IMG/VR virus record: IMGVR_UViG_3300031963_000694
Coordinates: 1-29,208 of that record
From: a virus
Reading direction: 5' to 3' (one strand)
Length of the DNA: 29,208 nucleotides
Shown here: piece by piece, positions 2,920-10,319 of the stretch
Position numbering within the stretch: the stretch's first letter is position 1
Layout: each line of letters starts with the position of its first letter
Made by a program: the position numbers and the translations under genes
Notes under the pieces: model-generated
What the model was told of the DNA's origin: nothing
The model's database searches: none
Seen by the model: only the letters and a program-made list of their open reading frames with translations

Positions 2920-3576
2920 TCAGCGGCCCCTGGTGGCCAGCAGGGCCTCCACGGCCCGGGACAGGCGGGCTTCGGTGCTCTCCTCCTCCGGCAGGGCCTC
3001 CGCCAAGCGGGCCATCAGCCGCTGGAACTCCGCCATCGCCTGCTGATCCGGGAAGGTGAGCTGCACCGTCAGCCCGGCTGGCGGTGGTTCCGGTGGGGCG
3101 GGGGGCTCGGGTTCCTCATCGATGCCGTGAACCAGGGCCTTGAACTCGTCATCGGAGAACCACGGGCTCAGGTCCAGCTCGGCGTGGTCATCCAGCAGTG
3201 CCGCCAGGGCGGCGCCGTCAAACTCTGAGGTGTCGCTGGAGCGGTTATCGGCCACCCCGTATTCCGCCTTTTGCGAGGGGGAAAGATCGGTCCGCTGCAC
3301 CGCCACCAGGGTGCGGCCATCGGCTGGGATGACCAGCACCTTGTCGATGCCGATGGCTGCTGCCGCTTCTGCGGTGCCGTTGCCGGCGAGGATCACCCCG
3401 TCCTCATCCACCACCAGGGAGCGGGCCGCCCCGAACTCGCGCAGCGAGCGCTCGATCATCCCCGTGCTCCGCTGTGTGCGGCGCCGGGCGTTCTTGGGGT
3501 CCTGCAGCAGGGCCTCCAGAGTGGTCAACGTGGGCATGGTCACCGGGACCAGGGGAGAGGTGCGGCGCCTAGCCAT
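2920..3576 (-). CDS. ParB/Srx-like nuclease-domain protein
   Basis: The 218-residue product carries a ParB N-terminal-type domain at about residues 14-120. The visible pattern is DPKNARRRT, then an alpha helix (IERSLREFGAARSLVV), then the signature-like stretch VILAGNGTAEAAAAIG, and a later AVQRTDLSPSQKAEY segment. Residues 140-165 form a Pro/Glu linker and the C-terminus is a charged helix. Phage ParB-like proteins of this kind often sit next to terminase genes and may bind or nick DNA, or use a nucleotide cofactor as in the wider ParB/sulfiredoxin fold. It is the first gene of the packaging operon; no Shine-Dalgarno site precedes its ATG. Domain assignment is fairly secure; activity is unknown. 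Confidence 0.82.
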   Translation of the reverse strand: MARRRTSPLVPVTMPTLTTLEALLQDPKNARRRTQRSTGMIERSLREFGAARSLVVDEDGVILAGNGTAEAAAAIGIDKVLVIPADGRTLVAVQRTDLSPSQKAEYGVADNRSSDTSEFDGAALAALLDDHAELDLSPWFSDDEFKALVHGIDEEPEPPAPPEPPPAGLTVQLTFPDQQAMAEFQRLMARLAEALPEEESTEARLSRAVEALLATRGR

Positions 3577-5604: not shown

Positions 5605-5937
5605 TCACCAGGCCTCGGTGGGCTCTGGGGGGCCGACAGGGTCCGCAGGTGGGCGCCAGCAGGGACGAGGGATCGGGGCTGGCGGGGCAGCAGCGGCGGC
5701 CGCGGCCTGCTCTTCAGGGGAGGGCATCCAGACCATGGCCGCGGGCTTGCGCCAGGTGTGCCGGATGGTGCCCACCTTCCAGTCGTCGTAGACGTGGAAC
5801 CGGTGCCCGCCAGCGATGAAGTACCGGCCGATGTGCCGCTCGACGGTGATGGGGTAGGCGGAGGTGGAGCCACGCTCCAGGCACAGCAGGGTGGCACCGA
5901 CCGGTGGGTGCGGGCGGGAGGGAAGGATGGCGGCCAT
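5605..5937 (-). CDS. Hypothetical protein (110 aa)
   Basis: The first 75 residues look like a compact beta-rich domain (TLLCLERGSTSAYPITVERH, then GRYFIAGGHRFHVYDDWKVG, then TIRHTWRKPAAMVWMP). The remainder is an alanine/proline-rich tail. The start overlaps the stop of the upstream gene (TGATG), so it is translationally coupled. A competing frame over the same bases gives only low-complexity proline/serine sequence, which supports this frame. Function unknown; its place in the replication operon suggests an early role. Confidence 0.65.
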   Translation of the reverse strand: MAAILPSRPHPPVGATLLCLERGSTSAYPITVERHIGRYFIAGGHRFHVYDDWKVGTIRHTWRKPAAMVWMPSPEEQAAAAAAAPPAPIPRPCWRPPADPVGPPEPTEAW

Positions 5938-6446
5938 CAGCAGCCCCCCCGCGGCATGGCGGGCAGCAGGCCAGCGACTGCCTCACGGGAGGCCTTCATC
6001 TGGCGGGCCTGCTCAGCGGTGGCCTGGACGCCGGCGAGAGCGATCTGGCGGCGGTTGCGGTGGATGGTGGCGATGGCCTGCTGATGAAGATCACAGCCCA
6101 CCAGGCGGGGACCCAGCAGGGCCTCGATGCGGCGGGGGCCGGCGGAATCGCGATAGCCGCCGCGGCCCTCGCGGGCGTAGGCGGCGTTGCAGCAGCAGAT
6201 GACCGCCGGATCGGAGCCGGGGCAGACCTCGCCGGTGGGGAGGACGTCGTAGTCGGGGAGGAACTCGTTGATCGCCCGGTCGTGATTGCCGACGATGCCG
6301 GTGTCAGCGCAGGCGAAACAGGCGAAACCCGGGAGGACGAAGGCGGGGCCGGCTGGAGGGCGCCGCTTGTGCAGGGCCAGCGGCCCGGAAGCCAAGGGCT
6401 CGGGGGCCAGCGGCCCTGGTGGTGCTGAGGAGAGCGAGAGGGTCAT
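5937..6446 (-). CDS. Hypothetical cysteine-containing early protein
   Basis: The 169-residue product starts at an ATG that overlaps the stop of the replication initiator (ATGA). Residues 10-30 are a proline/alanine/leucine repeat encoded by a degenerate GGCCAGCGGCCC-type DNA repeat. The middle has cysteine pairs (FACFACAD, then VICCCNAAYA) that could bind metal. The C-terminus is helical (HQQAIATIHRNRRQIALAG). No known family is recognised. Position directly after the initiator suggests a replication or early helper function, but this is inference. Confidence 0.65.
   Translation of the reverse strand: MTLSLSSAPPGPLAPEPLASGPLALHKRRPPAGPAFVLPGFACFACADTGIVGNHDRAINEFLPDYDVLPTGEVCPGSDPAVICCCNAAYAREGRGGYRDSAGPRRIEALLGPRLVGCDLHQQAIATIHRNRRQIALAGVQATAEQARQMKASREAVAGLLPAMPRGGC
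6369..6422. repeat. Degenerate GGCCAGCGGCCC repeat tract
   Basis: Within the 5-prime part of the 169-residue gene the motif GGCCAGCGGCCC occurs twice, separated by related GCCAAGGGCTCGGG sequence. A related tract lies at about 16934-16973 within the muramidase gene. It encodes a low-complexity Pro/Ala/Leu segment. Confidence 0.5.
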
Positions 6447-7729
6447 TGGCCTTGGCCGGTGACGTGGCGGTGGTAGGCGAACGGGTCGGGGGCTCCGGTC
6501 TCTGGATCGATCGGGGCGACGAACTCGGCGGCGTTGGCGGCGACGGGCTGGTGCGGCTGGAGGTAGGCGGCGAAACGGCGCTCCTTCAGCCAGCGGGCCA
6601 TATCAGGCAGGAAGGGGGCAAAGCCGGTTGAGGCGTGCTGCTGGTCCTGGGCACGAACCTCAGCGGCCAGGGCAGCAACCAGCTGGTCGATGGTGTGACC
6701 CTCGGCGAGGACGGCGGAAAGCTCTTTCTGAGCAGCCGGCAGAGATTGACAGGTGACCCGGCGAGGCGCCGCCAGGTAGGGGGTGCGGAGGGCGTCGAAG
6801 GCGGCCGTGGCTGCAGGGCCTGCGCGGAGCTCTTCGCAGCGGCGGCGGTAGCCGGTGGCCAGGGACTTGCAGCCGCTGTCGGCGGCGTGCTGGAGGAAGG
6901 GCTGGAGGACCCCGAGGGCGTCGGCGTGGAGGATCGCCGTGATGTCGCCAGGGCTGAGCTCGTTGGGGGCGGTGGGGTGCTTGCTGCGCCGCCTGATCCA
7001 CCACTCGCGGAGCAGCTGGCGGTGAGGCTGAGCGCAGGCTGGCAGAGGGCTGTGCTGCTCGGTTGCCGGGTTGGCATGTCGCTGGGGAGCGTCGTTCTCG
7101 GCTGACGATACCACGATCTCGCTACCTGTCACGACGGCGTCGGCCGTTGTGACCGAGGGCGCGGCGGCGTCGATTTTTTCGTCGCGTTGGTGGATATATG
7201 TAGTGGAGTAATTATTTAACCCTTCTTGGTTTTCTTCTTCTTTGTTTAGAGGTTTATTGATTGGGTCCCCGTTACGGGGGCCCCGTAACGGGGGGTCCCC
7301 ACCCCCTGTAACGGGGGGGCCTTTAAGGGGGGTCCCCTCCCCGTTAAGGGGGGTCCCCTTTACGGGGGGTGGTGCTCCTGACTTCCGCTGCCTGCCAACG
7401 GCTTTCGGCGCCCGTCGCTTGCGCGTTGCTTCCATTCTCACCCGGTAGGAGTTGGTGCCGTTTGGGCCCGAACCGGTGCGCGTGATCCAGCCCTCGCCCA
7501 GAAGGGTGGAAATCGACGCCCTGACGTCGTCCTCCTTCATGCCGGTTTCGAGGGCAAGCCGTGGGATTGACGGGAAAGCGTTATCAGCACGCCCCGCGTA
7601 GAAAAAGAGCCAGGCGTACACAAACACCAGCCTTCTGCGCTTGCGTTCTGCACACGAACTCAGCAGCTCGAGGGGGATCTGAGCGAACAGGGGGCGGTGC
7701 AGTTCACCGCTAAAGTCTTTGTTCGGCAT
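6443..7729 (-). CDS. Winged-helix replication initiator-like protein
   Basis: The 428-residue protein has an N-terminal winged helix-turn-helix (about 12-100: FAQIPLELL, VFVYAWLFFYAGRADNAFPS, TGMKEDDVRASISTLLGEGW) as in phage and plasmid replication initiators. A basic linker and a Gly/Pro repeat (about 123-157) follow, encoded by palindromic iterons, then a polar segment encoded by AT-rich DNA (about 158-182). The C-terminal domain (about 230-420) is helical (LLREWWIRRRSKHP and onwards). This mirrors lambda O, whose gene contains the origin. The frame stays open 99 codons upstream, but that part is low-complexity and the wHTH begins naturally after the ATG at 7729. The helical C-terminus would recruit helicase-loading partners, by analogy only. 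Confidence 0.75.
   Translation of the reverse strand: MPNKDFSGELHRPLFAQIPLELLSSCAERKRRRLVFVYAWLFFYAGRADNAFPSIPRLALETGMKEDDVRASISTLLGEGWITRTGSGPNGTNSYRVRMEATRKRRAPKAVGRQRKSGAPPPVKGTPLNGEGTPLKGPPVTGGGDPPLRGPRNGDPINKPLNKEEENQEGLNNYSTTYIHQRDEKIDAAAPSVTTADAVVTGSEIVVSSAENDAPQRHANPATEQHSPLPACAQPHRQLLREWWIRRRSKHPTAPNELSPGDITAILHADALGVLQPFLQHAADSGCKSLATGYRRRCEELRAGPAATAAFDALRTPYLAAPRRVTCQSLPAAQKELSAVLAEGHTIDQLVAALAAEVRAQDQQHASTGFAPFLPDMARWLKERRFAAYLQPHQPVAANAAEFVAPIDPETGAPDPFAYHRHVTGQGQ
7191..7262. other. AT-rich block, candidate DNA-unwinding element
   Basis: By direct count, 21 of these 72 bases are G or C (29%), whereas the surrounding DNA is roughly two-thirds GC. It directly adjoins the iteron cluster, on the downstream side in the initiator's direction of transcription, as in the lambda origin. 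It contains TTCTTCTT-type tracts and lies inside the initiator reading frame. Confidence 0.6.
7266..7370. repeat. Six palindromic iterons, candidate replication origin
   Basis: Six imperfect copies of a palindromic unit with C-rich left arm, a GTTAC/GTAAC/GTTAA/TTTAA/TTTAC centre and G-rich right arm are visible, centred near 7273, 7287, 7310, 7324, 7345 and 7361. Units 1 and 2 (CCCCGTTACGGGG and its reverse complement) have perfect six-base arms around one centre base. The units come in pairs 14-16 bases apart, with pairs about 35-37 bases apart. They encode the Gly-Thr/Asp-Pro repeat of the initiator. A related CCGTTACGG core recurs at 7867-7875 in the upstream control region. Confidence 0.65.
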
Positions 7730-8112
7730 GTCAGGGGTTTGTGTGGTTCCTTCCACTCCCCTCGGCCTGCAGATACCGGCTGTTGCTGTAGGATGACCAC
7801 GTTGCGGCCATCGGTTCTGCTGGGGAGCGTTTCCGGCGGTCGCAGCCCGAAAGGGCAACATCGGCTCCGTTACGGCGGGGCCTTTGTTGTGGGCGGCAAA
7901 CCGGCCTGGATGGCTTGACCATAGCCGTATCAGTACGAACTGAGCCAGCGGCGTCTCCAATCTGAGGCCCTGGCGGCGGTGCTGCAGATCCGCTGCAGGC
8001 CCTTGTGCGGTCATCACGGCAGGCACGCCGGATGTGCCCCGGTGGGCACCTGATAGGACTTATGTTCGGCTCTCGATGGGGTCGGACACTCCCACTACGC
8101 ACGGATGACGCC
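7730..8112. promoter_or_regulatory. Divergent control region, no gene seen
   Basis: This 383-base gap lies between the leftward replication operon and the rightward regulator-like gene, so it should hold promoters for both. Visible features: a CCGTTACGG iteron-like core at 7867-7875; a GCCC-GAAA-GGGC hairpin near 7845-7856 with no T tract; a TTGACC at 7915-7920 without a good -10 partner; and an inverted repeat GTGCCC-CGGT-GGGCAC at 8034-8049 just upstream of the plus-strand gene. I saw no credible protein-coding frame in it. The open frame extending the initiator upstream is low-complexity. Confidence 0.5.
8034..8049. repeat. Inverted repeat upstream of the regulator-like gene
   Basis: GTGCCC and GGGCAC form six-base perfect arms around CGGT, 63 bases before the start at 8113. 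This could be an operator or an RNA hairpin; no T tract follows, so it is not a typical terminator. Confidence 0.35.
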
Positions 8113-9368: not shown

Positions 9369-10319
9369 ATGAAAAACAGCTCCCCGCCCTCCGGGCCGGC
9401 GGAGAGGTCCGCCGAGCAGACCGACCTCGAACACATCACCCAGACCCTGCTGCAGCTGGCCGATCGGGTTGCCGCCGGAGAGGCCGACACTGCCGCACGC
9501 TTCGAGGCGATGCGCCAGGCCTTTGGCGAGCTGCGCAGCCGCCTGAACCAGGACCAGGGCGGACAGCCCGCGCCGAGAGATGACCAGGAACGCCGACTGA
9601 TCGAGTTCCTCTGCTACAGGCCCACCAGCGAGCAGCAGATGCAGCTGTTCGCCGCCTTCGCCGAATGGCAGGCCACCGCACCCAGGCTGACGGAGAACCG
9701 GCAGGCGGAGTATCAGACCAAGAAGGGCGGCACCATCTCCTACGGCTACGCCGACCTGGCCGGCGTGATCGCCACGGGCCAGGCTGCCGCGGCCCATGGC
9801 CTGGTGCCTATCACCCGCCAGGAGCTCGATGACTTCGGCGATCCGGTGGTGACGGCCTATCTGGTTCACCTCGGTGGTGGGGCGATCACCAGCGGACCAG
9901 TGCCCCTGTTCATGGGCGAGAGCGACCGCCGCGGCCAGGCCCACGCTGCAGCTCTCACTACCGCCAGGCGGCTGGCCCTGCAGATGGTGCTGGGGCTGGC
10001 CGCTGAGCGTGATGACGATTTCAACGCCAGCAGCGAGACCAGCCCACGGCAACAGGCCGCCAAGCCTTCCGGAGCCCGGACCGTTGCGACTCCACAACGG
10101 CGGCAGGGTGAGACCACCGCACAACGGGCGAGGACCGTGGGGGGGCCGCCTCCCGGGTGGATCAGCAAGGACGAGAGGAGGGGGCTCGAGCAGGAGCTGA
10201 TGGATCCGGCGATCACCCCGGAGCGGTTCGCGGAGATCGAAGCGAAGCTCATCGCCGCTGATCAGCTGGCGGCCAGCCGGGCCCAGGGCGGGCAGGCCGC
10301 GGCAGGGCCAGCGTCATGA
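9369..10319 (+). CDS. erf: ERF-family single-strand annealing protein
   Basis: ERF-type proteins anneal complementary single strands in phage recombination, like lambda Beta or RecT. The 316-residue product has a helical N-terminus (ITQTLLQLADRVAAGEADTA). The conserved ERF core follows at about 95-215: QQMQLFAAFAEWQATAPRL, KGGTISYGYADLAGVIATGQ, AHGLVPITRQEL and a long helix LTTARRLALQMVLGLAAE. The C-terminus is disordered and charged, with a final acidic helix that could recruit SSB or a nuclease. It heads the plus-strand accessory operon. There is no purine-rich ribosome site before the ATG. The nearby GTTAAC and a TTCGGTTA/TGACCGAA inverted repeat at 9306-9358 may be regulatory. Confidence 0.8.
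   Translation: MKNSSPPSGPAERSAEQTDLEHITQTLLQLADRVAAGEADTAARFEAMRQAFGELRSRLNQDQGGQPAPRDDQERRLIEFLCYRPTSEQQMQLFAAFAEWQATAPRLTENRQAEYQTKKGGTISYGYADLAGVIATGQAAAAHGLVPITRQELDDFGDPVVTAYLVHLGGGAITSGPVPLFMGESDRRGQAHAAALTTARRLALQMVLGLAAERDDDFNASSETSPRQQAAKPSGARTVATPQRRQGETTAQRARTVGGPPPGWISKDERRGLEQELMDPAITPERFAEIEAKLIAADQLAASRAQGGQAAAGPAS

What the first reader, a model, noticed from the sequence alone, without database searches (positions are those of the whole stretch)
7185..7370. Lambda-type origin embedded in the initiator gene
Six palindromic GC-rich iterons (7266-7370) are followed, in the direction of initiator transcription, by a 72-base block with only 29% GC in a high-GC context (7191-7262). 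All of it lies between the winged-helix domain and the C-terminal domain of the initiator frame. That is the layout of lambda ori within gene O. The iterons appear in three pairs, with 14-16 bases inside a pair and about 35-37 between pairs.
Basis: partly seen in the sequence, partly recalled or inferred. Interest (0 to 1): 0.75.

Follow-up and report, generated by a model that had tools for sequence, protein, structure and literature searches.

The report
Lambda-like origin inside phage initiator gene
This phage, probably one that infects cyanobacteria, seems to carry its DNA replication start site inside the gene for the protein that recognises it, laid out as in phage lambda; relatives keep the DNA signals while the protein stretch written over them changes, and in one pair the site and its reader domain were exchanged together.

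Summary
The initiator gene (window 6443-7729, minus strand, 428 aa) contains five clear palindromes (CCCCGTWACGGGG type) and one degenerate copy at 7267-7367. They form three pairs, 14-16 bases apart within a pair and 36-37 between pairs. Downstream lies 7191-7262, 29% GC, the most AT-rich 72 bases of the window. Thirteen other distinct relatives (IMG/VR) keep palindromes in nearly the same register, and every one spanning the region keeps the AT block. Codon choice shows DNA-level selection: fourfold-site identity is 0.80 in the iteron linker, against 0.37 and 0.53 in the flanking domains, although the linker protein is least conserved. Synonymous simulations almost never reproduce the palindromes (at most 1 of 1000) or AT block (at most 1 of 2000). 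Iteron cores differ by lineage and follow the winged-helix tree. In one natural recombinant pair (L036/L037) winged helix, iterons and AT block were replaced as one ~490-bp cassette. AlphaFold places the origin over a disordered linker between winged helix and C-terminal domain. Best reading: an in-gene, lambda-layout replication origin. It is not a PF04492 lambda-O member, and no lambda P-like loader or DnaB-type helicase was found. Origin function is untested. New member of a known kind.

The parts
6443..7729 (-). initiator gene, 428 aa, ATG at 7729; the longer GTG frame up to 8026 is probably not coding in that part, because all close relatives start at this ATG
   Evidence: PHROG 270/391/678 replication initiation / O-like; HTH_36
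7439..7672 (-). winged-helix DNA-binding domain (residues 20-97; candidate recognition helix residues 66-79)
   Evidence: AlphaFold secondary structure; HTH_36 match 37-82
7355..7367 (.). iteron 1 CCCCTTTACGGGG
7339..7351 (.). iteron 2 CCCCGTTAAGGGG
7318..7330 (.). iteron 3, degenerate, GGCCTTTAAGGGG
   Evidence: aligned palindrome present in relatives
7303..7316 (.). iteron 4 CCCCTGTAACGGGG
7281..7293 (.). iteron 5 CCCCGTAACGGGG
7267..7279 (.). iteron 6 CCCCGTTACGGGG
7257..7270 (-). GGGGACCCAATCAA, longest run of identical bases in the 13 aligned genes, at the iteron / AT-block junction
7191..7262 (-). AT-rich block, putative unwinding element, 29% GC; rare Leu codons TTA/CTA concentrated here
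7049..7429 (-). disordered linker (residues 101-227) that carries iterons, AT block and further synonymously conserved DNA
   Evidence: pLDDT < 50 over 101-227; synonymous conservation
7128..7153 (-). imperfect inverted repeat GTCACAACGGC-N4-GCCGTCGTGAC downstream of the AT block, conserved in most relatives; role unknown
7080..7091 (-). CGCTCCCCAGCG, 12 bases identical in 13 genes; role unknown
6446..7042 (-). helical C-terminal domain (residues 230-428), putative contact site for replisome or loader
   Evidence: function inferred
5937..6446 (-). conserved Cys-rich 169-aa gene whose ATG overlaps the initiator stop (the position of lambda P); no similarity to P found

Best explanation
The 180-bp stretch is the phage's replication origin, embedded in its initiator gene. 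The N-terminal winged helix binds the paired C-tract/G-tract palindromes, several copies assemble a nucleoprotein complex (an O-some analogue), and the adjacent AT-rich block melts. The C-terminal domain then brings in the host replicative helicase, directly or through an unidentified partner. Shown here: the anatomy, its conservation, DNA-level selection on it, and co-inheritance of winged helix with iteron type. Inferred: binding, melting and helicase recruitment.
For: Palindromes stay in register in 13 other distinct relatives with different cores. Fourfold-site identity is 0.80 in the iteron linker and 0.76 in the AT block, against 0.37 in the winged helix and 0.53 in the C-terminal domain. 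Codon nulls: iterons 0-1 of 1000, AT block 0-1 of 2000. The AT block is the lowest-GC part of the gene in all 13 genes that span it. Same plan in distant initiators: L022/L036, L039, L042 and cultured cyanophage KBS-S-2A. Natural cassette exchange: L036 and L037 are 95-97% identical over most of the flanks, but winged helix, iterons and AT block are unrelated. Iteron type needs the minimum of 4 changes on the winged-helix tree (0 of 200 shuffles), and L037 changes place between the winged-helix and C-terminal trees. Structure: winged helix, disordered linker, helical C-terminal domain. Lambda control in the same register. PHROG O-like and initiator families.
Against: No binding or replication data. 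No lambda P homologue was recognised and no DnaB helicase was found in ten related contigs, some of them fragments, so the loading step is open. The protein does not match PF04492 and has no detectable profile similarity to lambda O directly. Given the linker's existing codons, merely permuting them gives as many C/G palindromes in 2-17% of permutations, so part of the signal is C- and G-tract codon choice rather than exact placement.
Confidence: 0.86

Rival explanations
1. The palindromes are operator or partition-type sites: the initiator, or the ParB-like protein encoded at 2920-3576, binds them for autoregulation or segregation, and replication starts elsewhere.
For: The palindromes look like dimer binding sites; a ParB-like protein is encoded in the window.
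Against: They lie about 360 bases inside the gene, away from its start. They are always followed by an AT block kept by rare codons, which an operator would not need. They travel with the initiator's own winged helix. SPP1 and lambda use the same in-gene arrangement as origins.
Confidence: 0.06
2. The palindromes act as RNA hairpins in the mRNA (translation pausing, stability or antitermination), with no role as duplex binding sites.
For: Perfect C/G stems with 3-7 base loops would fold in RNA.
Against: Where the winged helix is of another type (L037), and in KBS-S-2A, the copies are direct repeats or imperfect palindromes, yet the repeat array followed by an A-rich block remains. Cores are alike within a phage and differ between phages, as expected for protein sites.
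Confidence: 0.03
3. The repeat is a Gly/Pro protein linker in a GC-rich genome, and the DNA pattern is a by-product of codon bias.
For: The linker peptide is Pro/Gly rich and CCC/GGG codons alone give many C/G tracts (within-linker permutation).
Against: Palindromes occur in all three codon phases; linker amino acids are the least conserved part while synonymous sites are the most conserved; gene-wide codon usage gives 0.3-0.8 sites instead of 4-6.
Confidence: 0.03
4. It is an in-gene origin but not the only or main one; a second array elsewhere (as oriR in SPP1) drives replication.
For: SPP1 has two origins (PMC6316719); the window is probably only part of the genome, since related contigs reach 57-68 kb.
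Against: No second iteron array was seen in the 29-kb window; the rest of this genome is not held.
Confidence: 0.1

Closest known systems
Phage lambda ori within gene O (and six-iteron Stx-type lambdoid origins)
   Same: Iteron array then AT-rich tract, in the middle of the initiator gene, in the direction of transcription, at nearly the same gene coordinates; the iterons are C/G-tract inverted repeats (lambda ATCCCTCAAAACGAGGGA; some relatives here TCCCCCAAAAGGGGGA); Stx phages have 6 iterons (PMC7466680).
   Different: Winged helix matches HTH_36 rather than PF04492; iterons are 13-17 bp instead of 18, set in pairs; core GTWAC in the window clade; no lambda P homologue recognised in the following gene.
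Bacillus phage SPP1 oriL within gene 38
   Same: Direct repeats plus AT-rich unwinding element inside the origin-binding-protein gene (PMC6316719).
   Different: SPP1 encodes its own loader gp39 and DnaB-type helicase gp40; no DnaB_C match was found in ten related contigs.
Cyanophage KBS-S-2A gene CPKG_00028 (HQ634187, 'hypothetical protein')
   Same: Related winged helix (hhalign 98.7% probability), C/G-tract iterons CCCCCAAAAGGTGG in the linker, then an A-rich block.
   Different: About 35% identity to the window protein over the winged helix, shorter protein (264 aa), A4 core, imperfect palindromes.

Membership tests
Origins embedded in initiator genes (lambda-layout origin) | array of three or more initiator-type repeats inside the initiator gene | tested here: met
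Origins embedded in initiator genes (lambda-layout origin) | AT-rich block next to the array on its downstream side | tested here: met
Origins embedded in initiator genes (lambda-layout origin) | array lies between DNA-binding domain and C-terminal domain, over a flexible linker | tested here: met
   winged helix 20-97, pLDDT < 50 over 101-227, helical domain from 231 (predicted model)
Origins embedded in initiator genes (lambda-layout origin) | DNA signals conserved beyond protein constraint | tested here: met
Origins embedded in initiator genes (lambda-layout origin) | iteron type matches the DNA-binding domain type | tested here: met
   few independent type changes
Origins embedded in initiator genes (lambda-layout origin) | initiator binds the repeats, melts the AT block and supports autonomous replication | not testable with these tools
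   needs footprinting and plasmid replication
Phage_rep_O (PF04492), lambda O proteins proper | match to PF04492 | tested here: not met
   no match for the window protein or relatives; lambda O control matches at 5.7e-36; hhalign with lambda O E = 0.79
O-like phage initiators (PHROGs 391, 678, 345; HTH_36 winged helix) | match to profiles that also match lambda O | tested here: met
   phrog_391, 678 and 345 match both lambda O and the window protein, weakly for the latter; HTH_36 over cut-off in relatives, 21.5 of 25 bits in the window protein
Lambda O-P module | helicase loader P encoded directly downstream | tested here: inconclusive
   a conserved Cys-rich 169-aa gene overlaps the stop codon but matches no loader family; its model is too poor to judge

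The most novel reading that the evidence does not exclude
Winged helix, iterons and AT block form one ~490-bp exchangeable 'origin identity' cassette in cyanobacterial phages, swapped whole between phages that keep the C-terminal domain and backbone. The C-terminal domain, or the Cys-rich neighbour protein, recruits the cyanobacterial DnaB helicase without any lambda P or DnaC-type loader.
Probability: 0.3. Interest if true: 0.55.

Novelty: new member of a known kind. Interest (0 to 1): 0.42.

Why it matters
It gives uncultured phages, probably of cyanobacteria, a concrete predicted origin that can be cloned. It shows that the lambda in-gene origin plan recurs with initiators outside the lambda O family. 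The relatives supply a natural series of paired winged-helix and iteron sequences, including one whole-cassette swap, that could be used to work out recognition rules. Similar repeats sit unannotated in the cultured cyanophage KBS-S-2A.

Tried and rejected
Exact-pattern search for the window iteron in IMG/VR found only L006/L007 plus three unrelated contigs (L008-L010) whose match lies outside any initiator gene; rejected as relatives. No relative in PLSDB plasmids or GTDB genomes, and none at 1e-5 among named phages for the window protein itself. Foldseek against PDB gave only generic winged-helix regulators with no significant hit; the viral library gave weak HTH proteins, including a Stx-type O protein at E 0.019; not used as proof. 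The structure of the following gene product is uninformative (pLDDT 39). Cumulative GC skew peaks near 7-10 kb, but gene direction also switches near 8 kb, so it is confounded. CCCC-N-GGGG counts over the whole window are not above chance; clustering, register and conservation carry the case. A promoter/terminator scan gave nothing decisive.

Full report
What is there. The window is a 29,208-base IMG/VR virus record. The gene at 6443-7729 (minus strand, 428 aa) matches PHROG replication-initiation families, several labelled O-like, and has a weak HTH_36 winged helix. Its linker DNA holds five clear palindromes and one degenerate copy (7267-7367), in three pairs with 14-16 bases between starts inside a pair and 36-37 between pairs. 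They are followed in the direction of transcription by 7191-7262, at 29.2% GC the most AT-rich 72 bases of a 65.8% GC record.

Not a by-product of the protein. Simulating the linker peptide with the gene's own codon usage gives 0.4 CCCC-N-GGGG sites on average against 4 seen (0 of 1000). Relatives show 4-6 against 0.3-0.8 (0-1 of 1000). The sites fall in all three codon phases. Permuting the linker's existing codons weakens the contrast (2-17% of permutations reach the observed count), so much of the signal lies in choosing CCC and GGG codons at all. The AT block peptide is expected at 47-55% GC and is 31-39% in all ten genes tested (0-1 of 2000). Its leucines are almost all TTA or CTA, codons used for 0-3 of the gene's other leucines.

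Conservation. An alignment-based scan of IMG/VR gave 16 related loci; with the window, 14 distinct genes belong to the close family. Palindromes sit at nearly the same gene positions in all of them, with different cores (CCCCTACAGGGG or CCCCCAGGGG types against GTWAC in the window and L006). Fourfold-degenerate identity over pairs is 0.37 in the winged helix, 0.80 in the iteron linker, 0.76 in the AT block, 0.72 in the next 30 codons and 0.53 in the C-terminal domain, while amino-acid identity is lowest in the linker (0.54; 0.36 for the window against others). The AT block is the lowest-GC stretch of the gene in all 13 genes that span it. The longest invariant DNA run, GGGGACCCAATCAA, marks the iteron/AT junction.

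Deeper relatives and a natural swap. L022/L035, L036, L039, L042 and L044 (about 33-46% identical in the matched parts) have 4-6 iterons of the type TCCCCCAAA[TCA]GGGGGA in the same place; in those read in full an AT-richer stretch follows. Cultured cyanophage KBS-S-2A has CCCCCAAAAGGTGG repeats in an unannotated gene with a related winged helix, followed by an A-rich stretch. L036 and L037 are 95-97% identical in DNA over most of the flanks (87% just upstream of the start codon) and 96.5% from the end of the AT block onward. The roughly 490 bp between start codon and that point are unrelated: L037 has another winged helix, CTAGTGCA-type repeats and its own A-rich block. On trees, iteron type needs the minimum number of changes along the winged-helix tree (4; 0 of 200 shuffles), and L037 pairs with L036 by C-terminal domain but with Prochlorococcus phage MED4-184 by winged helix. 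These trees have long branches and few independent type changes.

Protein architecture. AlphaFold with 15 sequences gives a winged helix (residues 20-97), a linker 101-227 with pLDDT below 50, and a helical C-terminal domain from 231. The origin DNA lies over the disordered linker, where changes in the protein cost least (inference).

Comparison with lambda, run as a control. Lambda O has iterons at gene nt 349-433 and an AT tract from 434; here 363-463 and 468-539. Published work places lambda's four 18-bp iterons and 38-bp AT-rich tract inside gene O (PMC3349717), notes six iterons in Stx phages and O contacts to the G-tracts (PMC7466680), and describes SPP1 oriL inside gene 38 (PMC6316719). 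Direct membership in PF04492 fails; shared PHROG profiles 391, 678 and 345 indicate a remote O-like relationship only.

Mechanism. Most likely the winged helix loads on the iterons, the AT block opens, and the C-terminal domain brings in helicase. No DnaB-type helicase was found in ten related contigs of 22-78 kb, so the host's is probably used. The conserved gene in the P position encodes a Cys-rich protein of no known family, so the loader is unknown. Binding, melting and loading are inferred.

Host. The large terminase is closest to phages of Cylindrospermopsis and Nodularia at 30% identity, and the nearest cultured relatives of the wider initiator set infect Synechococcus and Prochlorococcus. 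A cyanobacterial host is likely but not shown. No paper in the searched library describes iteron origins in cyanophages; that is a limited library.

Verdict. Confirmed observation, supported interpretation, known kind of system in a new lineage, with a useful natural experiment in the relatives.

Noticed in passing
L036:3010-3499 versus L037:2935-3412: Natural replacement of winged helix, iterons and AT block between two phages with 95-97% identical backbones; breakpoints at the start codon and just after the AT block.
   Followed up: yes
window 5937-6446 (-): Conserved Cys-rich gene (CxxC then CCC) in the position of lambda P, overlapping the initiator stop; 67-83% identical in nine of ten related contigs, no known family, possible zinc protein.
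   Followed up: partly
window 7080-7153 (-): Two further conserved DNA elements inside the gene downstream of the AT block: inverted repeat GTCACAACGGC-N4-GCCGTCGTGAC and the invariant 12-mer CGCTCCCCAGCG.
   Followed up: partly
L046:2841-2923 (KBS-S-2A, HQ634187): Unannotated iteron array plus A-rich block inside a gene called hypothetical protein in a cultured cyanophage; a likely origin.
   Followed up: partly
L047:2824-2927 (Prochlorococcus phage MED4-184): Repeats (GTMCACCAGATGAACT-like, ATCTCAGCAACYAG) followed by an AT-rich stretch inside the annotated replication initiation protein gene; possible in-gene origin of another iteron type.
   Followed up: no
window 7863-7882: GGCTCCGTTACGGCGGGGCC hairpin-like site upstream of the initiator start, containing CTCCGTTACGGCG (two mismatches to the iteron); possible operator or terminator.
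   Followed up: no
window 2920-3576 (-): ParB-like / methyltransferase-associated domain protein (PHROG 620, 498) in the same phage.
   Followed up: no
window 9369-10319 (+): Erf-type single-strand annealing protein (PF04404).
   Followed up: no
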